Shown here one piece after another: positions 55,826 through 63,871 of a stretch of 64,000 bases of DNA. The translations under genes and the position numbers were made by a program. The stretch covers positions 299,018 through 363,017 of the forward strand of contig NZ_JAHAMK010000001.1 of the NCBI RefSeq assembly GCF_018383585.1. The letters are read 5' to 3'. Below the pieces are notes generated by a model. It was not told the origin of the DNA. It saw only the letters and a list, made by a program, of their open reading frames with translations, and did not search any database. Source of the stretch: Microvirga sp. 3-52. GTDB lineage: Bacteria > Pseudomonadota > Alphaproteobacteria > Rhizobiales > Beijerinckiaceae. Each line of letters begins with the position of its first letter. Position 1 is the stretch's first letter.

Positions 55826-56659
55826 ATGACCTTCACCCGAGCCGACGCACTCGCCGTCGCGGATATTCTCAGAACAACGGCGCAAGCCGAGATCCTGCCG
55901 CGCTTCCGGAACCTGTCGGCTGACGCCATCCGTACGAAGTCCTCGCAGCTCGATCTTGTAACGGATGCCGATGAGGCGGCCGAGCGTGTCATCGAGACCG
56001 AGCTCCTGCGCCGGTTTCCGGCGGCTATCGTCATCGGGGAGGAGGGTGTCAGCCGAAATGCGCGGCTGCTCGACGGACTCGGCGAGGCCGATCTCGCGTT
56101 TATTCTCGACCCCGTCGACGGCACCTTGAATTTTGCCTCAGGCCTGCCGCTCTTCGGCGTGATGGCCGCCGTGGCGATGAAGGGCGAGATCGTCTGCGGG
56201 GTGATCCTGGATCCGATCTCTGACGATTGGGCCATGGCGGTTCGCGGAGAAGGTGCCTGGACTCAGCGCCCGGACGGCAGCACCAGTCCGCTTCAGGTTT
56301 CTTCGCCGGTGCCATTGGCGCAGATGGCGGGCAACGTTTCATGGCGTTATCTGCCCGAGGACGTTCGCCCCATAGTGACGGGAAATCTGCCGAAGGTCGC
56401 TATGGCGGCCGATCTCCGCTGCGCGGCGCATACCTATCGCCAAATCGCGGCCGGTTACCTTCACTTCTCGTTCTCGTCGAGCGTGATGCCATGGGATCAT
56501 GCGGCAGGCTGGCTGATCCATCGTGAGGCTGGCGGCTACACGGCGCATTTCGACGGTTCGCCCTACCGCCCTGTCAATCGCGGCGGCGGTCTCATCAGCG
56601 CGCCCGACAAGGAAAGCTGGCAGGCCGTGCGCGATGCGCTTCTCCCGCCTCAGGACTGA
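55826..56659 (+). CDS. Inositol monophosphatase family protein
   Basis: 277 residues with the Mg-dependent phosphatase motifs: GEEGVSR, DPVDGTLNFASGLP and the C-terminal PWDHAAGWLI. Members hydrolyse inositol phosphate, histidinol phosphate or 3'-phosphoadenosine-type nucleotides; the exact substrate cannot be set. Its last 10 nt overlap the end of the convergent YheO-type regulator gene. Confidence 0.92.
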   Translation: MTFTRADALAVADILRTTAQAEILPRFRNLSADAIRTKSSQLDLVTDADEAAERVIETELLRRFPAAIVIGEEGVSRNARLLDGLGEADLAFILDPVDGTLNFASGLPLFGVMAAVAMKGEIVCGVILDPISDDWAMAVRGEGAWTQRPDGSTSPLQVSSPVPLAQMAGNVSWRYLPEDVRPIVTGNLPKVAMAADLRCAAHTYRQIAAGYLHFSFSSSVMPWDHAAGWLIHREAGGYTAHFDGSPYRPVNRGGGLISAPDKESWQAVRDALLPPQD

Positions 56660-57291
56660 TCTTTTTTAAGATAGTTGTAGACCGTTGCGCGGCCCAGACC
56701 CAGCAGGCGCGAGATATAGGCCGCTGCATTGCGCCCGCCGAAGGCCCCATCGCCGGCAAGATCGGTAACAAGCTGCTGTTTCTGGGCGCGGCTCATCTCT
56801 GCGATGGTGACGCCGCGTGCGCGGATCCATGACTGGATGTATTCGTTGATGCGCTCGTGCCAGTCCTCCTTGAACAGCGAGGCCGGCTTCTCGGGGGATT
56901 GAGGCACGGCAACGAGCGCAGTCAGGGTCTGCATCACGGCGTGAAAATGTGAAACATCCATGTTGATGCAGAGAATGCCGACGGCCTTTTCTGCTAAGCG
57001 CAGGACAGCACTGACCGATTTGATGCGCCGCCCGTCCCAGTTCACCTTCTCATAAGGTCCGATGATGATGTCCGACGGCTTGAAGTCGATCTCGTGCAGG
57101 AGAGACGGCTCACCGAGCTCCCGCTTGGAAAAGGGATTGGACAGGTAGACCACAGTCTCGGTCGAGAGATCGTGGAGCACCACCTCCGCATAGGGTTGGA
57201 AGAGCAGCGCGATGGCATCGCAGACAGGCGCATAGCTCGCCAGTTCCGGCGCGAGCGTCACCGTGGCGTCGGCTTTGCGCGTCCGGCTCAT
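56650..57291 (-). CDS. YheO/DauR-type PAS-HTH transcriptional regulator
   Basis: 213 residues. The N-terminal YheO-like PAS domain (about 20-130) shows LLFQPYAEVVLHDLSTETVV and VGILCINMDVSHF. The C-terminal HTH (about 165-213) ends SRLLGLGRATVYNYLKK. DauR, a member of this family, represses D-arginine catabolism in Pseudomonas. Here the gene overlaps the aminotransferase stop by 4 nt (ATGA), so the two are co-transcribed. It probably controls the divergent catabolic operon through the palindrome at 58465. Confidence 0.88.
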   Translation of the reverse strand: MSRTRKADATVTLAPELASYAPVCDAIALLFQPYAEVVLHDLSTETVVYLSNPFSKRELGEPSLLHEIDFKPSDIIIGPYEKVNWDGRRIKSVSAVLRLAEKAVGILCINMDVSHFHAVMQTLTALVAVPQSPEKPASLFKEDWHERINEYIQSWIRARGVTIAEMSRAQKQQLVTDLAGDGAFGGRNAAAYISRLLGLGRATVYNYLKKDQS

Positions 57292-58403
57292 TTGAGCCCT
57301 GTACGCACGAAGGACGCAAGCCGATCCAATCCTGCCTCAAGATGATGGGCGGGTGCCCCGATTCCGATCCTGATGTAGTGATCCATGCCATAGACGTCGC
57401 CTGGCAGAAGCATGATGCCGCGCTCTTCGCGCAGGCGGTGCACCAGTTCGGTCGAGTTCATCGACATGGCGTAGCGGATGAAGGCCATGCCTCCGGCTTC
57501 GGGCGGCACGAAGGAGAAAAGGTCGCTGTTGGCATCGACCCAGCGCTGCAGCAGCGCAAGGTTCTCACGCAGGATGCGCTTGCTGCGGGCGAGGATCTCC
57601 TGCCGCTTGGCAGGCTGCACGGCGATCTCCGCCACGAACTCGCTCACGGCGCCCGTCGTGATCGAGGTGTAGTCCTTGCGCTGCCAGGAGGCGTAGATTT
57701 CCTGAGCAGGACCGACGAGCCAGCCGATGCGCAGGCCCGGAAGTGCCATCGCCTTTGACAGGCCACTCGTGATGATGGCTTTTTCATAGAGATCGGCGAA
57801 GCTCGGAGGCTCGTCCTGATTGAGCTCCGCGCCCTTATAGACCTCGTCCGCATGGAGGTAGATGCCGTGATGGCGGGCGATCGCGACGAGACCGTCCATC
57901 GTCTCGCGGGACAGAACGCTGCCGGTGGGGTTGTTGGGGTTACAGATCGTCATCATCTTCGTGCGATGCGAGATGGCCTTGCGCACGTCATCGAGATCCG
58001 GCGTCCACCCGAGTTCCTCGCGCAGCAGGACCTCCTTGACGGTCACACCGATGGCGCGGGCCCAGCCCCAGATCTGCAGGTAATTCGGAACGAAGACCAC
58101 AAGTTCGTCCCCAGGCTCCAGGAGCGACATCACGAGAAGGAAGTTCGCCTCGGCCGAGCCGTTGGTGACGATTACGTGGTCCTCGTTGCGATCGGGGTGA
58201 AGGCTGGCAATTGCCCGCCGTAGCTCCACGCGGCCGTTGGTCCAGCCATAGCCGAGTTCCACGTCGAGCACCTGGCTTTGCTGCTCCGGCGTCAGAAGCT
58301 CGCGCAGGGAATAGGGGTGCACTCCGCTGTCGGACAGGTTGTACTCAACCGTATTCTCGTAGAGCGACTGAATGCGCTCGAGCGTGAACTCTTCGATCTT
58401 CAT
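57288..58403 (-). CDS. PLP-dependent aminotransferase class I/II (VioD-like), paralogue 1
   Basis: 371 residues, fold type I. PLP Lys217 in TSGLSKAMALPGLRIGW, Asn157 in NPNNPTG, Asp186 in ADEVYKG and substrate Arg in YIRIGIG. The N-terminal YNLSDSGVHPYSLREL resembles, from memory, capreomycidine synthase (VioD) rather than ordinary aspartate aminotransferases. It has a clear paralogue transcribed in the opposite direction at 58595. Substrate unknown; arginine-like or beta-hydroxy amino acids are possible given the neighbours. Confidence 0.88.
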   Translation of the reverse strand: MKIEEFTLERIQSLYENTVEYNLSDSGVHPYSLRELLTPEQQSQVLDVELGYGWTNGRVELRRAIASLHPDRNEDHVIVTNGSAEANFLLVMSLLEPGDELVVFVPNYLQIWGWARAIGVTVKEVLLREELGWTPDLDDVRKAISHRTKMMTICNPNNPTGSVLSRETMDGLVAIARHHGIYLHADEVYKGAELNQDEPPSFADLYEKAIITSGLSKAMALPGLRIGWLVGPAQEIYASWQRKDYTSITTGAVSEFVAEIAVQPAKRQEILARSKRILRENLALLQRWVDANSDLFSFVPPEAGGMAFIRYAMSMNSTELVHRLREERGIMLLPGDVYGMDHYIRIGIGAPAHHLEAGLDRLASFVRTGLK

Positions 58404-58464
58404 GGCGATCCCCGCATCGTAGGACAGTTTATCCGGGCTCTAACATTAGATTATTAGACTTCAT

Positions 58465-58479
58465 AGTCCAAGTTGGACT
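58465..58479. promoter_or_regulatory. Operator candidate: AGTCCAA-G-TTGGACT
   Basis: A perfect 15-bp palindrome (7-bp arms, central G) in the 191-bp AT-rich gap between two divergent aminotransferase genes. Upstream sequence TAACATTAGATTATTAGACT may hold promoter elements. Likely site for the YheO/DauR-type regulator encoded in the left operon. Confidence 0.65.
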
Positions 58480-58594
58480 TGACCGTTTAATTCCTTGTCT
58501 GCCATGGTCCGCCTCTGCCGGCTGCCATGACGATGCTGTGGCGCGGCAGGTTCTCTAAGCTTGCCTCGACGCCATACCTCATTGGAGCATTTGG

Positions 58595-59716
58595 GTGCAG
58601 TTCGATACTTTCCTGATGGAGCGAAACCAGACGCTGTTTGAGAACGGCGTCGAGATCAATCTCACGGAGAGCGGGGTGCATCCCTGCACCATCGAAGAGA
58701 TCCTGCCGGGGGACGAGGCCCAGGCTCTGCTGCGTCAGCCCCTCGGCTATGGTTGGACGGACGGGCGGCCGGATCTCAGGGCCGCGATTGCGACCTGGTA
58801 TTCCGGAGCCTCTGCCTCCAACGTTCTGGTGACGAACGGCTCATCGGAAGCGACGATGATCACGCTGATGGCGATGATCGATCCCGGCGACAAGGTACTC
58901 TTTGCCGTTCCCAACTTCATGCAGGTGGACGGACTCGGACGCGCCTTGGGCATGTCCATCCAGCGCCTTCCTCTGCTGGCCGATCAGGGCTGGCAGGTCG
59001 ATCCAGAAGCTCTGAAGAAGGCGATGGAGGGCGTGAAGCTAATTTCCGTCACCAATCCCGCCAATCCGACCGGAGCCGTTCTGTCGCGCCGGAGCCGCGA
59101 GGCTCTTCTGGACGCAGCGCAGGGATCAGGCGCTTGGCTTCTCGTCGACGAGATCTATCGCGGCGGCGAGATCGACGGGGCGGAGACGGAGACTTTCTAT
59201 GGCGACTATCCTCGCGTCATCGTCACCAGCAGTCTGTCGAAGTCCTTCGCGTGCCCGGGACTGCGTCTTGGCTGGATCGTCGGACCTGAAGGCGCGGTCG
59301 AGGAAGCGGCGAAGCGGCAGGATTACACGACCATCGGAAGCGGAATTCTGAGCCAGATCCTCGGGGCTGCCGTCATGGAGCCGAAGAACCGCGAACGCAT
59401 TCTGGCCAGGGGGCGAGCCCTGCTGCGCGAGAATGCCGATATCGTGGAGCGTTGGGTCGAGAAGCGGAATCGCTGGTCCTGGCAGCGCCCTGATGCCGGC
59501 GGTATGGCGTTTCTTCGCTATGATTTCGACATGCCGTCAGAAGATTTATCGAACCAGCTGAGGGAAGAGGAAAGCGTCTTCGTCGTTGCGGGAAGCTGGT
59601 TCGGGGTTGAAAACCACGTCCGTATCGGCATCGGGGTGAAGACCGAGCATCTGGTGGAAGGATTGGCCCGTCTGGACGCATTCCTTTCCCGGCATGGCTT
59701 AGCCCAGAGAGCATAG
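58595..59716 (+). CDS. PLP-dependent aminotransferase class I/II (VioD-like), paralogue 2
   Basis: 373 residues, GTG start at 58595 with GGAG 8 nt upstream. PLP Lys216 in TSSLSKSFACPGLRLGW, NPANPTG, VDEIYRG and HVRIGIG. The N-terminus INLTESGVHPCTIEEI matches paralogue 1 (YNLSDSGVHPYSLREL) position by position, showing common origin. Possibly one enzyme is catabolic and the other acts on a related stereoisomer or oxidation state. Followed 4 nt later by the M20 gene. Confidence 0.88.
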   Translation: MQFDTFLMERNQTLFENGVEINLTESGVHPCTIEEILPGDEAQALLRQPLGYGWTDGRPDLRAAIATWYSGASASNVLVTNGSSEATMITLMAMIDPGDKVLFAVPNFMQVDGLGRALGMSIQRLPLLADQGWQVDPEALKKAMEGVKLISVTNPANPTGAVLSRRSREALLDAAQGSGAWLLVDEIYRGGEIDGAETETFYGDYPRVIVTSSLSKSFACPGLRLGWIVGPEGAVEEAAKRQDYTTIGSGILSQILGAAVMEPKNRERILARGRALLRENADIVERWVEKRNRWSWQRPDAGGMAFLRYDFDMPSEDLSNQLREEESVFVVAGSWFGVENHVRIGIGVKTEHLVEGLARLDAFLSRHGLAQRA

Positions 59717-59719
59717 ACG

Positions 59720-61117
59720 ATGCTACCGTCTGAACACCTGGTGCGGGCAAGAGAGGATCTCCGGCGCCTTGTCCGCATTCCATCGGTGAGTGCGCGGGGG
59801 GAATGCCTTTCCGAATGCGCCCATGCCGTTCGCGACCTGCTCGTCGCGGCTGGATTTCGGACGGAGATCTGCGCTGGGGAAATCGGCCCATTCGTCGTCG
59901 CCGAGATCGGTGACGGTCCCCTGGCCGTCATGGTGTACAACCATTACGACGTGCAGCCCGAGGACCCAGCACCATTGTGGAAAAGTCCTCCGTTTGAACT
60001 GAGCGAACGCGATGGGCGATGGTATGGACGCGGCGTTGCCGATGACAAAGGGGAGTTCATCAGCCGCCTCGAGGGCTGGCGCCTGTTCCGCGAAGAACAT
60101 CCCGGACCTTTGCCCTTCCGATTCATCTGGCTCATCGACGGCGAGGAGGAGATCGGCAGCCCATCGCTCGAGACATTCCTGAAGACACGGTTCCAGGATG
60201 AGAAGGTCGATGTCTGCTGGTGGGAATATGGCGAGATCGACTCCACCGGCCGCCCCATCGTCCTCTGCGGCTTCAAGGGCGTGATGGCCGTCGAGCTGCG
60301 TTGCCGGACGGCCAGGGCCGATCTGCACTCGAGCCTGGGTGCGGTCTTCGACAACCCATTGTGGCGGCTTGCTGCCGCCACGGCCTCCTTGCGCGACGGG
60401 TCGGGCCGCGTTCTGATCGAGGGTTTCTATGATGCAGTTCGGCAGCCTGCGCAGGACGGGCTCGATGTCGCGGCCAAGCCTCCATTTTCGTTCGACAGCC
60501 TGGTTCAGGCAACGGGCGGACAGAAGGTTCTGGACGGCATCGATGAGGCCAATTTCTATGCGGCGATGAATTTCGAGCCGTGCATGAACGTCAACGGCTT
60601 TTCCGGCGGTTATGCCGGCGAGGGCGCCAAGACCGTGGTTCCGGCCGAGGGCTCCGTCAAAATCGATTTCCGCGTCGTGCCGGATCAGGATCCGCAGCAC
60701 GTTGTACGTCTCCTACGAGCTCATCTCGACCGGCTCGGCTTCGAGGATGTCGAGCTCATCGTTCACGACGCCAATGTGAAGCCTGTCCGGTCGTCGACAG
60801 ATCACTGGTTCATTCAGGATGCCCGAGAGATCCTGGAAAAACATTTTGAGCGACCCGTCATCGTGCAGCCGAGTTCGCCCGCCTCCGGCACGGCGCATCC
60901 CTTCGTCGAGCAGCTCGGCGCGGATATCGTGGGTATCGGACTTACCCATCACGGGGCCATGCTACATTCGCCGAACGAGAACATCATCATCGAACAGTTC
61001 GAGGCCATGATCGAATGCTCCGCGGCGCTCTTTCGGAGGTTTGCGGAGCGGGCAGCCGGAATGAGATCGGAGATCAAGTCAAACGACGTCTTTCCGATGA
61101 ACGGGGTGACACCATGA
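59720..61117 (+). CDS. M20 family metallohydrolase (dipeptidase-like)
   Basis: 465 residues. Zinc motifs: MVYNHYDVQPED, RGVADDKGEF, IDGEEEIGSP with catalytic Glu, TARADLHSSLGAVFD and C-terminal MLHSPNEN. A dipeptidase or N-acyl amino acid amidohydrolase of the same broad group as the protein at 7966-9354 but clearly different in sequence. Its place between the aminotransferase and the dehydratase suggests it releases the free amino acid from a dipeptide or N-acyl conjugate. Its stop overlaps the next start (ATGA). Confidence 0.92.
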   Translation: MLPSEHLVRAREDLRRLVRIPSVSARGECLSECAHAVRDLLVAAGFRTEICAGEIGPFVVAEIGDGPLAVMVYNHYDVQPEDPAPLWKSPPFELSERDGRWYGRGVADDKGEFISRLEGWRLFREEHPGPLPFRFIWLIDGEEEIGSPSLETFLKTRFQDEKVDVCWWEYGEIDSTGRPIVLCGFKGVMAVELRCRTARADLHSSLGAVFDNPLWRLAAATASLRDGSGRVLIEGFYDAVRQPAQDGLDVAAKPPFSFDSLVQATGGQKVLDGIDEANFYAAMNFEPCMNVNGFSGGYAGEGAKTVVPAEGSVKIDFRVVPDQDPQHVVRLLRAHLDRLGFEDVELIVHDANVKPVRSSTDHWFIQDAREILEKHFERPVIVQPSSPASGTAHPFVEQLGADIVGIGLTHHGAMLHSPNENIIIEQFEAMIECSAALFRRFAERAAGMRSEIKSNDVFPMNGVTP

Positions 61118-62076
61118 ACAGCATCGTTCTCGAAACCGCTGCACGGTCGGTTCAGGCGCGTCGGCGTATTCGCCAGCATATCTTCGAGACGCCATTGCTG
61201 CCGTCCCGCCAGATCGGCCCTCAGAGAGGATCCTCCGTCTTCTTCAAGGCCGAGAACTTTCAGCTCACCGGCTCCTTCAAGATCCGGGGTGCTGCGAGCA
61301 AGATGACAGCGCTCGGGCTCGACCGGGGCGTCATCACGGCATCGTCCGGCAACCATGGCATCGCATCGGCACAGGCTGCTGCGTCGACCAGGCAGGCCTT
61401 GACCGTCGTGCTGCCTGAGAACGTTTCGCAGGCAAAGCTCGAACGGATCCGCTCCTTCAACGTGGATGTGATCCTGCACGGCGCCGAGAGCGGAGAGGCG
61501 GAGCTTTACGCACAGCAGCAGGCTGCTTCCCGCGGCCTCGTCTATGTCTCACCCTATAACGATCCCGAGATCGTCGCAGGACAGGGCTCCATCGGACTGG
61601 AACTGCTCGAACAGGCCGACAGCATCGACAATGTCTTCGTTGCCATGGGCGGAGGCGGTCTGATCGGCGGCATCGGATCCGTGCTCAAGAGCTTCAGCCC
61701 GCGAATGCGGATTTACGGGGTGGCCGCTCAAAACTCGGCAGCCCTTGCAGCATCCATGGCAGCAGGGTGCGTGGTCGAAACCGAGCATTTCGACACACTT
61801 GCCGATGGTGTCGCCGGAGGCATGGACGAGGACAGTATCACGCTGCCGCTTGCACTCTCCGTCATTGACGAGGTCGTCACATGCACGGAAGCGGAAATTG
61901 CCGACGCCCTCAGGGACCTGGCCTTCAGGGAGAACCAGATCGTCGAGGGCGCGGCGGCTCTTGCCCTGGCAGGGTTCCTCAAGGTTGCGGATCGCTGCAA
62001 GGGGCAGACAAGCATCGTGATTCTTTGCGGAGCCAATTTCGATCGCGACAAGATTCTTTCTGTCCTGAACGGTTAG
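61114..62076 (+). CDS. Threonine dehydratase-family PLP enzyme (EutB/BhcB-like)
   Basis: 320 residues, fold type II: PLP Lys56 in FQLTGSFKIRGA, SSGNHGIASAQAAA and the phosphate-binding MGGGGLIGG. The length lacks the regulatory ACT domain of biosynthetic IlvA, so it is a catabolic dehydratase. The closest remembered relatives are EutB of ectoine utilisation and beta-hydroxyaspartate dehydratase BhcB, both of which also pair with an ornithine cyclodeaminase-family gene. Start at 61114 overlaps the M20 stop. Probable substrate: a beta-hydroxy amino acid. Confidence 0.9.
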   Translation: MNSIVLETAARSVQARRRIRQHIFETPLLPSRQIGPQRGSSVFFKAENFQLTGSFKIRGAASKMTALGLDRGVITASSGNHGIASAQAAASTRQALTVVLPENVSQAKLERIRSFNVDVILHGAESGEAELYAQQQAASRGLVYVSPYNDPEIVAGQGSIGLELLEQADSIDNVFVAMGGGGLIGGIGSVLKSFSPRMRIYGVAAQNSAALAASMAAGCVVETEHFDTLADGVAGGMDEDSITLPLALSVIDEVVTCTEAEIADALRDLAFRENQIVEGAAALALAGFLKVADRCKGQTSIVILCGANFDRDKILSVLNG

Positions 62077-62080
62077 GCCA

Positions 62081-63049
62081 GTGAGCATGATGGCGGCTGC
62101 CTCTCCGATCGCCTTTCTCGATCTTCCGCAAATCGAGGAGCGCCTCAAAGGCCTTGATCTGGTCGGCCTGATGGAGGGTGCATTCGCGGCCTTCTCCCGT
62201 GGTGAGGCGGTGGTGCCGACACCCGGTGAACTGCTCCTCAGGGATCCGCCGGGCGAGGTTCATATCAAGTACGGGTATCTGACTGGAAGCGATACCTACG
62301 TGATCAAGATTGCTTCCGGATTCTGGAACAATCCGGAAAGAGGCCTCAGCAGCAGCGATGGCCTCCTTCTCGTCTTTAGAAAGGAGACGGGCGAGCTGGC
62401 CGCGGTGCTCAACGACAGGGGGCGGCTGACGGATCTGCGCACGGCTGCTGCAGGCGCGGTTGCTGCAAAGCACCTCGCTCCCGAGAGAGTCGATGCGATC
62501 GGTGTTCTCGGCTGCGGCATACAGGCGGACCTGCAGGTGCAATTGCTGCAATCCGTGCGGCCCTGCCGCGACATCGTGGTCTGGGGGCGCAATCCGGAGC
62601 GTGCATCGGCCTATGCGAGACGGATGCAGGACAAGGACTTTTCCGTCGAGATCGTATCATCGCCGTCAGAGGTTGCGTCTCGCTGCCGTCTGATCGTCAC
62701 CGCAACCGCAAGCCCGTCGCCACTGCTCCAATGGAGCGATCTTCACCCAGGCACTCATGTTACTGCCATCGGGGCCGACAGCGCCAACAAGCAGGAACTC
62801 GATGAGACGATCATCCGTAATGCCGACGCTGTTGTGACTGACAGCAGGGTCCAGGCCCGGTCGCGCGGCGAGTTGGGGCGCGCCTTCGGGGTCGATATCA
62901 ATGCTATGAACAGAGTGATCGAGATCGGCGAGATCGTTCTGGAAACGGCGAAGGGGCGTGTGAAACCGGACCAGATTACCGTATCGACCTTCTCAGGATT
63001 GGCTGTTCAGGACATCGCGATCGCATCGGCGGTTCTGAAGCAGCCATGA
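62081..63049 (+). CDS. Ornithine cyclodeaminase/mu-crystallin family protein (EutC/BhcD-like)
   Basis: 322 residues from a GTG at 62081 (an ATG at 62087 is also possible). Motifs: EVHIKYGYLTGSDTYVIKIA, GRLTDLRTAAAGAVAAKHLA and the Rossmann segment AIGVLGCGIQADLQVQLLQ. Family members reduce imines or cyclise ornithine with NAD(H). Paired with a dehydratase, it could take the imine made by dehydration and reduce it to an amino acid, as BhcD does with iminosuccinate. Last gene of the operon, convergent with a small membrane protein. Confidence 0.9.
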   Translation: MSMMAAASPIAFLDLPQIEERLKGLDLVGLMEGAFAAFSRGEAVVPTPGELLLRDPPGEVHIKYGYLTGSDTYVIKIASGFWNNPERGLSSSDGLLLVFRKETGELAAVLNDRGRLTDLRTAAAGAVAAKHLAPERVDAIGVLGCGIQADLQVQLLQSVRPCRDIVVWGRNPERASAYARRMQDKDFSVEIVSSPSEVASRCRLIVTATASPSPLLQWSDLHPGTHVTAIGADSANKQELDETIIRNADAVVTDSRVQARSRGELGRAFGVDINAMNRVIEIGEIVLETAKGRVKPDQITVSTFSGLAVQDIAIASAVLKQP

Positions 63050-63064
63050 GGCGAATTCCGTCGT

Positions 63065-63667
63065 TCAGGCTGTCCGCGCGATGCGATCAATCAGAGCATC
63101 GATGTCCGCGATCTTCTTGAGACGGCGCTTGCATTGCCGGTCGAGATACCAGGCTCTGCCAATACTGAGGCCGAGAAAGGGCAGGGCCCAGAGGATGCTC
63201 ACCGCATCAAGCAGAACCAAGCCCAGAAACGCGATGGAGAGAATCCATGCTTCCATCCGCCCAAAGCCTTCCGTCAGCCCGTTCTTCACCAGCAATTGCT
63301 GTCGCTCCATCAGAAGGTGAGCCTTGGCGTGGTCCATTCTGGACCTTTGCGCGACGGAGGGAAGAGCGCTGCGCAGGTTCCCGAGAGCCGCTTCGATATC
63401 CGTCAGGCGCGCTGCTCGTTCCGGCGTTTCGGGCTCTCGCGGAATTGGGACGAAAGCTGCAGCGATGCGGCGGTAGAACGCCACGAGCGCAGGCGGATGG
63501 TTATCCTGTTCGGTCCCGCACGGGCTGGATTGAAAGTTGCCCGTGATGCGGTTGCGGATCTGGACAACAACCGCCCCATCCTTGTTTCGCTCGTTTCTTT
63601 GAAAGGAACTGGCGACATGCTCGGCGATCGCAAGTTCCACCGCGGCCTCAGCCCTGTCCGTCGACAT
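63065..63667 (-). CDS. Membrane protein of unknown function
   Basis: 200 residues from the ATG at 63665-63667, preceded by AAGGAGG with 7 nt spacing; the frame is open 52 codons further up without support. The N-terminal ~125 residues are soluble and Arg/Glu-rich, then come two close TM helices (WILSIAFLGLVLLDAVSILW, ALPFLGLSIGRAW) and a basic C-terminal tail (DRQCKRRLKKIADID). No family recognised. Confidence 0.7.
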   Translation of the reverse strand: MSTDRAEAAVELAIAEHVASSFQRNERNKDGAVVVQIRNRITGNFQSSPCGTEQDNHPPALVAFYRRIAAAFVPIPREPETPERAARLTDIEAALGNLRSALPSVAQRSRMDHAKAHLLMERQQLLVKNGLTEGFGRMEAWILSIAFLGLVLLDAVSILWALPFLGLSIGRAWYLDRQCKRRLKKIADIDALIDRIARTA

Positions 63668-63871
63668 CAACAGCCTCCTTCGCCTCTGGTGCTTCGGTGG
63701 GGAACGGGCCGTGTTGGTGAAGCGAAATGCACAGGCCGAAACATCCGGCAGCGCCAATGTGGCGGCTTCCTCAAGGTGAAGGAGCATGGTTAATGGATGG
63801 TTAAGCTTGGCGCCAACCTCCACAGTATCAGGGAGATCACGCGCCCTTTCATCGGGAATGCCGATCGCTCT

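What the first reader, a model, noticed from the sequence alone, without database searches (positions are those of the whole stretch)
56650..63049. Unassigned amino-acid catabolic island: two VioD-like PLP enzymes, M20 hydrolase, EutB/BhcB-like and EutC/BhcD-like enzymes, DauR-type regulator
The dehydratase plus imine-reductase pair occurs in ectoine degradation and the beta-hydroxyaspartate cycle, but the other genes of those pathways (eutA, doeA, bhcA, bhcC) are absent. Instead there are two paralogous capreomycidine synthase-like enzymes and an amidohydrolase, with near-zero spacing. A route for a modified (for example hydroxylated or N-acylated, arginine-like) amino acid is plausible and, as far as I know, not described. 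This is my best candidate for a new system.
Basis: partly seen in the sequence, partly recalled or inferred. Interest (0 to 1): 0.75.

Follow-up and report, generated by a model that had tools for sequence, protein, structure and literature searches.

The report
Conserved unassigned basic amino-acid catabolic operon
A soil bacterium (probably Microvirga) carries six tightly packed, probably co-regulated genes that look like a pathway for breaking down an arginine-like amino acid; related sets of these genes recur from rhizobia to distant phyla and some archaea, and I found no described pathway that explains them.

Summary
Window 56650-63049 holds two divergent operons: AT1-R (minus strand) and AT2-M20-DHT-OCD (plus strand), with 3-4 bp gaps or overlaps. 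All 22 carrier relatives examined keep AT1, AT2, R and M20; 21 keep DHT and 21 the OCD ortholog. A perfect palindrome, AGTCCAAGTTGGACT (58465-58479), lies between the operons; it is conserved (0-2 mismatches) in those 22 loci, lies upstream of AT2 in 6 of 8 Bosea-group loci, and its exact form occurs once in the genome. Combinations of AT, OCD, DHT and R recur in Rhizobium, Bosea, Kordiimonas, Sulfitobacter, Aminicenantes, Saprospiraceae and Asgard archaea. It is not ectoine degradation: the genome has a separate ectoine locus, and cluster OCDs form their own tree group. The ATs are not capreomycidine synthases: cyclase residues are replaced by the aminotransferase Tyr. Some relatives add a lysine/arginine/ornithine-type binding protein and a DoeB-like deacylase. 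Best reading: import and deacylation of a basic amino-acid derivative, formation of a 2-imino/2-keto acid by DHT or AT, and reduction by OCD under a DauR-like regulator. Substrate and step order are inferred. New variant of a known kind.

The parts
56650..57291 (-). R: DauR/YheO-like regulator (PAS_6 + HTH_22), 213 aa; overlaps AT1 by 4 bp
   Evidence: within 6 kb of the AT in 17 of 17 Microvirga, 11 of 11 Rhizobium/Pararhizobium and 8 of 8 Bosea-group loci
57288..58403 (-). AT1: fold-type I PLP enzyme, PRK07324/GntC/VioD-like, 371 aa; Lys217 and Arg345 present
   Evidence: AT1 clade spans phyla
58465..58479 (.). perfect palindrome AGTCCAAGTTGGACT, proposed operator shared by both operons
58595..59716 (+). 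AT2: paralogous PLP enzyme, 373 aa, 41% identical to AT1 (GTG start)
59720..61117 (+). M20 metallohydrolase (dipeptidase/deacylase family), 465 aa
61114..62076 (+). DHT: threonine/serine dehydratase-like PLP enzyme (PRK06815 > EutB > BhcB)
   Evidence: searched as 61111-62076
62081..63049 (+). OCD: ornithine cyclodeaminase/mu-crystallin family, probable imine reductase (PRK06823 > EutC > BhcD), 322 aa

Best explanation
A substrate-inducible catabolic system for a modified basic (arginine/ornithine-like) amino acid. Shown: six intact genes in two divergent operons around one conserved palindrome, with cross-species co-conservation. Inferred: R binds the palindrome and responds to the amino acid or an intermediate. 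A lysine/arginine/ornithine-type importer (its binding protein is encoded in the cluster in some relatives) brings the compound in. M20, helped in some species by a DoeB-like deacylase, hydrolyses an N-acyl, peptide or ring-opened amide form to the free amino acid. DHT removes a beta-hydroxyl (or other beta leaving group) by PLP chemistry, giving a 2-enamine/2-imino acid. OCD reduces that imine with NAD(P)H to the ordinary L-amino acid, as proposed for EutB-EutC and comparable to DauB in D-arginine use. AT1 and AT2 act at the amino-acid alpha carbon (transaminases or side-chain lyases, not ring-forming cyclases) and feed the same imino/keto-acid pool or drain its product. The recurring R-OCD pair, combined with AT1 in some lineages and DHT in others, suggests that the imino acid handled by OCD is the hub.
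For: Co-conservation and control. Operator. Modular recombination of R-OCD: with AT1 in Rhizobium and Bosea; with DHT in Sinorhizobium/Ensifer L208-L209 and Rhizobium BG4 L211 and in unnamed G653 L175; with DHT, ABC importer and an annotated amidohydrolase in Agrobacterium L159 and Shinella L160 (R and OCD hits labels); with ArgE, AT and DHT in Sulfitobacter L161. Basic substrate: the binding protein in L046 is over the TIGR01096 lysine/arginine/ornithine cut-off (275.6 vs 256.35 bits); its best solved relatives are the octopine- and nopaline-binding proteins, then LAO further down; the palindrome lies upstream of it in L046, L056 and L066. OCD not a typical cyclodeaminase: 101.6 of 350 bits with the ornithine cyclodeaminase model PRK07589, 25% identical to a genuine one, Glu56 of 1u7h/1x7d replaced by Arg, Asp228 kept (roles of these residues recalled). 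Dehydrate-then-reduce precedent: EutB/EutC proposal in PMC5924519 (passages). DauB and iminoarginine precedent: PMC5619798 (passages). AT not a cyclase: Tyr52 in 78 of 78 rows of the three AT clades, where GntC has Asn52 and OrfR an Asp.
Against: No enzyme here has been assayed, and no over-cut-off NCBIfam model hits any of the six proteins (best 25 models shown per protein). The importer and the deacylase are absent from the window's own cluster; the three best homologues of the binding protein in this genome lie on other contigs without the palindrome. In Rhizobium the AT1-R-OCD set lacks DHT and M20, and in Ensifer R-OCD-DHT lacks AT, so no single linear pathway fits all lineages. 25 of the 44 distant AT1-family loci have no OCD hit within 6 kb (several contigs are short). 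DHT appears to have joined the module more than once. The Glu56 test is weak: the S. meliloti relative L158 keeps a Glu and Sulfitobacter L161 has Asp in that column. A beta-hydroxyl on the substrate is inferred only from the DHT family.
Confidence: 0.37

Rival explanations
1. Ectoine/5-hydroxyectoine degradation, a second eut operon.
For: EutB- and EutC-like proteins and, in four Microvirga loci, an EutE/DoeB-like protein (one scanned).
Against: The genome has an ectoine locus about 240 kb away on the same contig: EutB, EutC, DoeA-like and EutE genes, Ehu-type ABC genes, MocR and AsnC regulators, aminotransferase and dehydrogenase (several named by me from sequence). Cluster DHT and OCD are only 33% and 39% identical to those; no DoeA in the cluster; EutB, EutC and EutE scores are below cut-off; OCD and DHT trees separate the Microvirga cluster proteins from the genome's own EutC and EutB.
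Confidence: 0.04
2. The ATs are gamma-lyases acting on a gamma-substituted amino acid (canavanine, homoserine or gamma-hydroxyarginine), and DHT and OCD process the resulting unsaturated or imino product.
For: GntC, a family relative, eliminates a gamma-hydroxyl from gamma-hydroxyarginine (PMC10367076, passages and part 1 of section 10); homoserine-dehydrogenase-like genes (naming mine) follow the AT in acidobacterial loci; some hosts come from legumes (R. etli Mim1 from Mimosa, Mesorhizobium from Lotus).
Against: GntC's gamma-hydroxyl-side Asn52 and its His250 are Tyr and Ile here. This genome has a separate B3/4 protein near a methionine-gamma-lyase-like gene, a better place for canavanine handling by analogy with the CtdA operon (PMC10018355, passages).
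Confidence: 0.15
3. An arginine/ornithine racemisation or D-amino-acid salvage system: the PLP enzymes interconvert L-, D- and keto forms and OCD acts as a DauB-like L-amino-acid dehydrogenase.
For: DauR-like regulator beside an OCD-family enzyme, as in dauBAR (operon layout and DauB family recalled; iminoarginine and DauB reaction in PMC5619798, passages); DHT belongs to the fold of serine and aspartate racemases; an Asp/Glu-racemase-like gene lies beside the AT in loci L124 and L138 (naming mine).
Against: No D-amino-acid dehydrogenase (DauA-like) gene in the cluster; M20 and the DoeB-like deacylase are then unexplained; DauB itself was not available for comparison.
Confidence: 0.2
4. An ornithine-type cyclodeaminase route: OCD cyclises a basic amino acid (for example to proline) after hydrolysis and PLP steps.
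For: OCD family; a Glu in the Glu56 column of the S. meliloti relative and Asp228 kept throughout; annotated arginase and ornithine cyclodeaminase near the M20 operon of Rhizobium CIAT894.
Against: Window OCD has Arg in that column and scores 101.6 of 350 bits with PRK07589.
Confidence: 0.08
5. Biosynthesis of diaminopropionate and capreomycidine, as in viomycin-type clusters (PALP + OCD + VioD).
For: The same three fold families co-occur in those clusters (recalled).
Against: DHT scores 67.5 bits with SbnA against 341 with PRK06815; OCD 95.9 with SbnB against 329 with PRK06823; VioD far below cut-off. No peptide-synthetase domain among the ten proteins scanned (53.8-63.8 kb).
Confidence: 0.02

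Closest known systems
Ectoine/hydroxyectoine catabolism, eutBCDE/doeAB
   Same: PALP dehydratase plus OCD-family reductase in tandem; in four Microvirga loci also an EutE/DoeB-like deacylase; amino-acid ABC importer in relatives
   Different: M20 instead of the M24 ectoine hydrolase DoeA; two fold-I PLP enzymes; PAS_6 instead of MocR/AsnC regulators; separate group in the OCD tree; ectoine locus present elsewhere in the genome
Beta-hydroxyaspartate cycle (BhcABCD)
   Same: Logic of aminotransferase + dehydratase + imine reductase (pathway recalled)
   Different: BhcB and BhcD scores far below cut-off (208/550 and 158/500 bits); no aldolase in the cluster; basic-type binding protein in relatives
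D-arginine utilisation dauBAR of Pseudomonas aeruginosa
   Same: PAS_6/HTH_22 regulator coupled to an OCD-family enzyme (dauBAR layout recalled); link to basic amino acids
   Different: No DauA-like flavoenzyme; DHT, M20 and two ATs instead; DauB sequence not compared
GntC, OrfR and VioD arginine cyclases; PRK07324 aminotransferases
   Same: Closest families by sequence for AT1/AT2; Glu9, Ser26, catalytic Lys and carboxylate Arg shared with GntC; SGVHP motif shared with OrfR
   Different: Tyr52 and Ile248 where GntC has Asn52 and His250; all models below cut-off
XRE-OCD-AT(PRK07324)-SBP-M20-ABC operon of R. etli Mim1 and Agrobacterium CFBP6625
   Same: M20 61% identical, OCD-family and PRK07324-family neighbours, amino-acid ABC importer
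   Different: XRE regulator, different OCD and AT subfamilies, no DHT; function also undescribed as far as I found

Membership tests
Ectoine/hydroxyectoine degradation operon | EutB, EutC, EutE over curated cut-offs | tested here: not met
   EutB 221.6/413.35 and 253.2/413, EutC 235.6/471.65; relative's EutE 289.3/402.7
Ectoine/hydroxyectoine degradation operon | Ectoine hydrolase DoeA/EutD (M24) in the operon | tested here: not met
   none among the six genes; a DoeA-like gene is in the genome's own ectoine locus (naming mine)
Beta-hydroxyaspartate cycle | BhcB and BhcD over cut-off | tested here: not met
   207.9/550 and 158.4/500 bits
Beta-hydroxyaspartate cycle | BhcA and BhcC present | not tested
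   absent from the cluster; not searched genome-wide
Capreomycidine synthase (VioD/OrfR) or GntC | Model over cut-off | tested here: not met
   TIGR03947 237.9 and 209.9 against 390.9; GntC model 255.1 and 242.6 against 415
Capreomycidine synthase (VioD/OrfR) or GntC | Cyclase active-site residues (GntC Asn52/OrfR Asp, Thr84, His250) | tested here: not met
   Tyr52, Ala or Ser84, Ile248 in AT1/AT2; position 84 is Ser in OrfR too
PRK07324 aminotransferase | Model over cut-off | tested here: not met
   325.3 and 270.3 against 476; the Agrobacterium relative passes at 552
Ornithine cyclodeaminase | PRK07589 over cut-off | tested here: not met
   101.6 of 350 bits
Ornithine cyclodeaminase | Glu56 and Asp228 of 1u7h/1x7d | tested here: inconclusive
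   window: Asp kept, Glu56 column Arg; but at 25% identity, and relatives L158 and L161 have Glu and Asp there (roles recalled)
M20 peptidase/deacylase | Peptidase_M20 and M20_dimer domains | tested here: met
   79.8 and 42.3 bits, both over cut-off
YheO/DauR-type regulator | PAS_6 plus HTH_22 | tested here: met
   80.3 and 63.3 bits, over cut-off
Canavanine gamma-lyase pathway | CtdA-type B3/4 protein beside the cluster | tested here: not met
   two B3_4 matches in the genome, both on other contigs; the standalone one is near a Cys/Met-type gamma-lyase-like gene
dauBAR D-arginine system | OCD is a DauB ortholog | not tested
   no named DauB sequence was fetched

The most novel reading that the evidence does not exclude
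AT + OCD + DHT is an old, undescribed amino-acid module, found in full or in part in Proteobacteria, Acidobacteriota, Actinomycetota, Bacteroidota, Aminicenantes, Chloroflexota and Asgard archaea. It converts modified basic amino acids to ordinary ones through a released 2-imino acid that is reduced by an OCD-family enzyme. The ectoine EutB-EutC pair would be a later specialisation of it, and a DauR-like regulator with a dedicated palindrome took it over in rhizosphere Alphaproteobacteria.
Probability: 0.25. Interest if true: 0.75.

Novelty: new variant of a known kind. Interest (0 to 1): 0.55.

Why it matters
The three enzyme families carry guessed names (threonine dehydratase, ornithine cyclodeaminase, aminotransferase) across phyla. 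Here they form a recurrent, probably regulated unit with a predicted operator and, in relatives, an importer component and an accessory deacylase, which makes the substrate question directly testable. An answer would correct many annotations, add a route for plant- or peptide-derived arginine-like compounds in rhizosphere bacteria, and could clarify how hydroxyectoine dehydroxylation (EutB/EutC), which a 2018 review stressed had not been evaluated biochemically (PMC5924519, passages), arose.

Tried and rejected
Canavanine operon: the key paper (10.1039/d2cb00128d) is not held; what I say of it comes from passages of PMC10018355 and PMC12508155. E. coli genomes with the DHT-OCD DNA: no match. 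M20 in 385 class-level genomes at E <= 1e-110: only the window's own genome, so M20 is rare at that threshold. Paper searches, seen as listings, for S. meliloti SMa0486/SMa0495 (no paper), dauB/dauR, hydroxyarginine, the MocR/eut comparison (passages of PMC5320631), the beta-hydroxyaspartate cycle, a canavanine/Rhizobium operon and the cluster's gene combination showed no description of this system in that library. The three best own-genome homologues of the binding protein have no cluster enzyme beside them. No structure prediction was run; sequence relatives with solved structures sufficed.


Full report
WHAT IS THERE. The window lies on contig C40 of a 5.19 Mb genome. Six intact genes occupy 56650-63049: R and AT1 on the minus strand, overlapping by 4 bp, and AT2, M20, DHT and OCD on the plus strand, with gaps of 3, -4 and 4 bp. 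The 191 bp between AT1 and AT2 separates two divergent operons. Upstream flanking genes are HtrA-, aldo/keto-reductase- and HisN-like; downstream is an ORF without a Pfam or NCBIfam match.

FAMILIES. By NCBIfam (best 25 models shown per protein) no model is over its cut-off. AT1 and AT2: PRK07324 (325 and 270 bits of 476), GntC (255 and 243 of 415), VioD (238 and 210 of 390.9). DHT: PRK06815 (341 of 371), EutB (253 of 413), BhcB (208 of 550). OCD: PRK06823 (329 of 438), EutC (236 of 471.65), BhcD (158 of 500). M20: PRK06446 (319.5 of 369). R has no NCBIfam hit. Solved relatives: 3op7 and 8fft (GntC) for the ATs, threonine dehydratases and serine racemases for DHT, archaeal alanine dehydrogenase and iminosuccinate reductase for OCD, Sso-CP2 for M20.

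CONSERVATION IN THE GENUS. In 101 genomes, 27 have an AT2 match at E <= 1e-60. Of handles G000-G047 (same genus as far as listed; 54 hitless genomes were not printed), 23 carry an AT2 ortholog of at least 81% identity, one of them in two pieces. In the 22 relatives among these (L041-L062) all 22 keep AT1, AT2, R and M20; 21 keep DHT and 21 the window-type OCD; L061 (M. flavescens) lacks DHT and has a 39% identical OCD instead. 19 of 22 keep the HisN-like neighbour. A few single genes match in two pieces (AT2 in L062, DHT in L060, OCD in L044); I describe these only. A 23rd same-genus locus, L066 (G009), has the M20, R, DHT and OCD orthologs with a different AT.

EXTRA GENES IN RELATIVES. Four Microvirga loci (L046, L056, L059, L066) have a deacylase gene between DHT and OCD. 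That of L046 matches EutE/DoeB at 289 of 402.7 bits; the others were not scanned. L046, L056 and L066 have a periplasmic binding-protein gene. That of L046 is over the lysine/arginine/ornithine cut-off, and its nearest solved relatives bind octopine and nopaline. By my reading of that alignment it keeps an Asp where the octopine- and nopaline-binding proteins have Asn and Ser; that this Asp contacts the alpha-amino group in LAO is recalled, so a free basic amino acid is my inference.

OPERATOR. Alignment of the AT1-AT2 interval in 15 of 17 Microvirga loci (two longer ones left out) shows one strongly conserved block. Its core is AGTCCAANTTGGACT, perfect in the window at 58465-58479. In the 17 Microvirga loci it occurs with 0 or 1 mismatch 71-78 bp upstream of AT1 in 17 of 17. 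In the 22 loci, which include many of the same species, it has 0 mismatches in 15, 1 in 6 and 2 in 1 (L050). In the Bosea group, where AT2 is not divergent from AT1, it lies upstream of AT2 with 0 or 1 mismatch in 6 of 8 loci; in L066 it lies between R and the binding-protein gene. Bosea (8 loci) and Rhizobium (10 loci) AT1 promoters carry conserved blocks of their own with similar half-sites (my reading). In the whole genome the exact site occurs once; with up to 2 mismatches of AGTCYAANTTRGACT there are 3 sites, against 18 per strand for the reversed control pattern. With 3 mismatches allowed, one match in the window is no more than chance (expected 1.57), so the claim rests on exactness and conservation. 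That R binds it is inferred.

BEYOND THE GENUS. One scan of the genome collection with an AT alignment gave 250 relatives, of which the best 80 were returned. Within 6 kb of the AT: Rhizobium/Pararhizobium 11 of 11 with OCD and R; Microvirga 17 of 17 with OCD, R, M20 and AT2 and 16 of 17 with DHT; Bosea group (7 Bosea, 1 unnamed Rhizobiales) 8 of 8 with OCD, R and AT2 and 2 of 8 with M20; the other 44 loci: 19 with OCD, 11 with DHT, 8 with both. Control on those 44: OCD hits 18 within 3 kb against 1 beyond, DHT 10 against 2, ABC ATPases 1 against 11, on 240 kb near and 414 kb far. By my arithmetic the OCD split has a chance near 2e-7, an overstatement since several loci are related. The 8 with both are Aminicenantes (2), a Hodarchaeota MAG, Acidimicrobiia, Saprospiraceae (2), Thermoanaerobaculia and Rhodoferax. 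25 of the 44 show no OCD within 6 kb; several contigs are short.

MODULES ON NAMED PLASMIDS AND IN OTHER GENOMES. Agrobacterium CFBP6625 and R. etli Mim1: helix-turn-helix regulator-OCD-AT-SBP-M20-permeases. Pararhizobium: AT-PAS regulator-OCD. Mesorhizobium: ABC, OCD, AT, RidA, carbamoylase-family hydrolase. Sulfitobacter dubius: AT, ArgE, PAS regulator, OCD, DHT. Agrobacterium Q15/94 and Shinella HZN7: amidohydrolase-OCD-ABC-DHT-PAS regulator. Sinorhizobium chiapasense and Ensifer: R-OCD-DHT; Rhizobium BG4: ABC-R/DHT-OCD-amidohydrolase, the last named by me. Unnamed G653: DHT-OCD-R. R plus OCD is the most constant pair; AT1, DHT and the hydrolases vary.

TREES (quick method, SH-aLRT only, near-identical loci thinned out before building, long branches flagged). 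OCD (78 rows): the cluster-linked OCDs of Microvirga, Rhizobium, Bosea, Kordiimonas, Sulfitobacter, Aminicenantes, Asgard and S. meliloti fall in one group of 49 (95) apart from the genome's own EutC and the other DHT-OCD pairs; that group also holds L175, L195 and L197 of the phylum sample; three OCDs of the XRE or PhzF sets (L163, L066_1280, L068) fall outside. DHT (53 rows): Microvirga DHT groups (98) with Sulfitobacter, Agrobacterium, Shinella, Rhodoferax, Marinimicrobia and Aminicenantes, whereas AT-linked DHTs of Saprospiraceae, Acidimicrobiia, Thermoanaerobaculia and Anaerolineae sit beside EutB and other DHT-OCD pairs, so a DHT may have joined the module more than once; the Hodarchaeota DHT is unplaced. 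AT (85 rows): AT1 spans phyla; AT2 is a Microvirga-Bosea-Mesorhizobium clade; the PRK07324 type is a third clade that also associates with M20, OCD or DHT.

NOT ECTOINE. The same contig holds an ectoine locus: EutB and EutC (33% and 39% identical to DHT and OCD), EutE, and, named by me from sequence, DoeA-like M24, MocR and AsnC regulators, Ehu-type ABC genes, aminotransferase and dehydrogenase. In 398 Pseudomonadota genomes 42 have an OCD match at E <= 1e-45. Of the 29 relative loci whose 1.5 kb flanks I read, 24 have a DHT beside the OCD; 10 of these show an EutE or DoeA-like gene, the rest cannot be named from so short a flank; 3 loci have R (L175, L177, L195).

ACTIVE SITES. In 78 AT rows of three clades (7 other rows of the 85 left out), Glu9, Tyr52, Lys217, Arg345 and Ile248 are invariant. 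GntC has Asn52 and His250 at two of these places and OrfR has Asp at the first. A Tyr is also there in the aspartate aminotransferase 1o4s. Glu9 and Ser26-Gly27 were partly selected for by the scan patterns, so their conservation in the AT1 clade is not independent evidence. OCD against true ornithine cyclodeaminase: Asp228 kept in all six family members compared; the Glu56 column is Arg in the window, Pro, Asn, Val and Asp in four others and Glu in S. meliloti L158. So the window OCD is not a standard cyclodeaminase by model score (101.6 of 350 bits), but residues alone do not settle it.

MECHANISM. Shown: anatomy, co-conservation, palindrome, family assignment, residue patterns. Inferred: basic substrate, deacylation, dehydration, imine reduction, regulation. 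The EutB/EutC proposal (dehydrate, then reduce; PMC5924519, passages) and DauB (2-ketoarginine to L-arginine; PMC5619798, passages) are the closest chemical precedents. The beta-hydroxyl is the weakest link.

CANAVANINE. A standalone B3/4 protein is on contig C92, near a methionine-gamma-lyase-like gene. CtdA sits beside the canavanine operon in P. canavaninivorans and R. leguminosarum (PMC10018355, passages). This makes the window cluster an unlikely canavanine operon, without excluding it.

VERDICT. Real, conserved and undescribed as far as the searches show; substrate unknown; a new variant assembled from known enzyme kinds.

Noticed in passing
G000:C92:52494-56030 (L076:9495-13031): Standalone B3/4 (CtdA-like) protein, a MocR-type regulator (naming mine) and a methionine-gamma-lyase-like gene side by side: possible canavanine-protection locus in this genome.
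   Followed up: partly
L147, L149, L153, L154 near the AT: Homoserine-dehydrogenase-like gene (naming mine) beside the AT1-family gene in acidobacterial MAGs; seen directly downstream in L147 and L154.
   Followed up: partly
L119, L124, L138: In Aminicenantes/Acidobacteria MAGs the AT lies near a nitrilase-family-like gene (clustered) and, in L124 and L138, an Asp/Glu-racemase-like gene (namings mine).
   Followed up: no
window 63065-63823 (-): ORF without Pfam or NCBIfam match, fast-evolving (48-79% identity) but kept at the end of the cluster in 19 of 22 Microvirga relatives.
   Followed up: no
L062:10970 and L106:5060: A second copy of the palindrome with 1 mismatch between OCD and the downstream ORF in M. 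tunisiensis.
   Followed up: no
G000:C32:54000-58700 (L170): Two tandem octopine/LAO-type binding proteins with permeases and ATPase near a 5-oxoprolinase PxpA-like gene (naming mine).
   Followed up: partly
L094/L061 (Microvirga flavescens): The cluster lacks DHT and carries a different OCD downstream of R that falls with the Bosea/Rhizobium type in the tree.
   Followed up: no
L160 (Shinella HZN7) and L073 (Rhizobium CIAT894): Annotated agmatinase, and annotated arginase plus ornithine cyclodeaminase, lie near related modules: a further hint at guanidino or basic amino acids.
   Followed up: no
L161 and L162 (Sulfitobacter plasmids): The related module lies between methionine gamma-lyase and urease genes in both species.
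   Followed up: no
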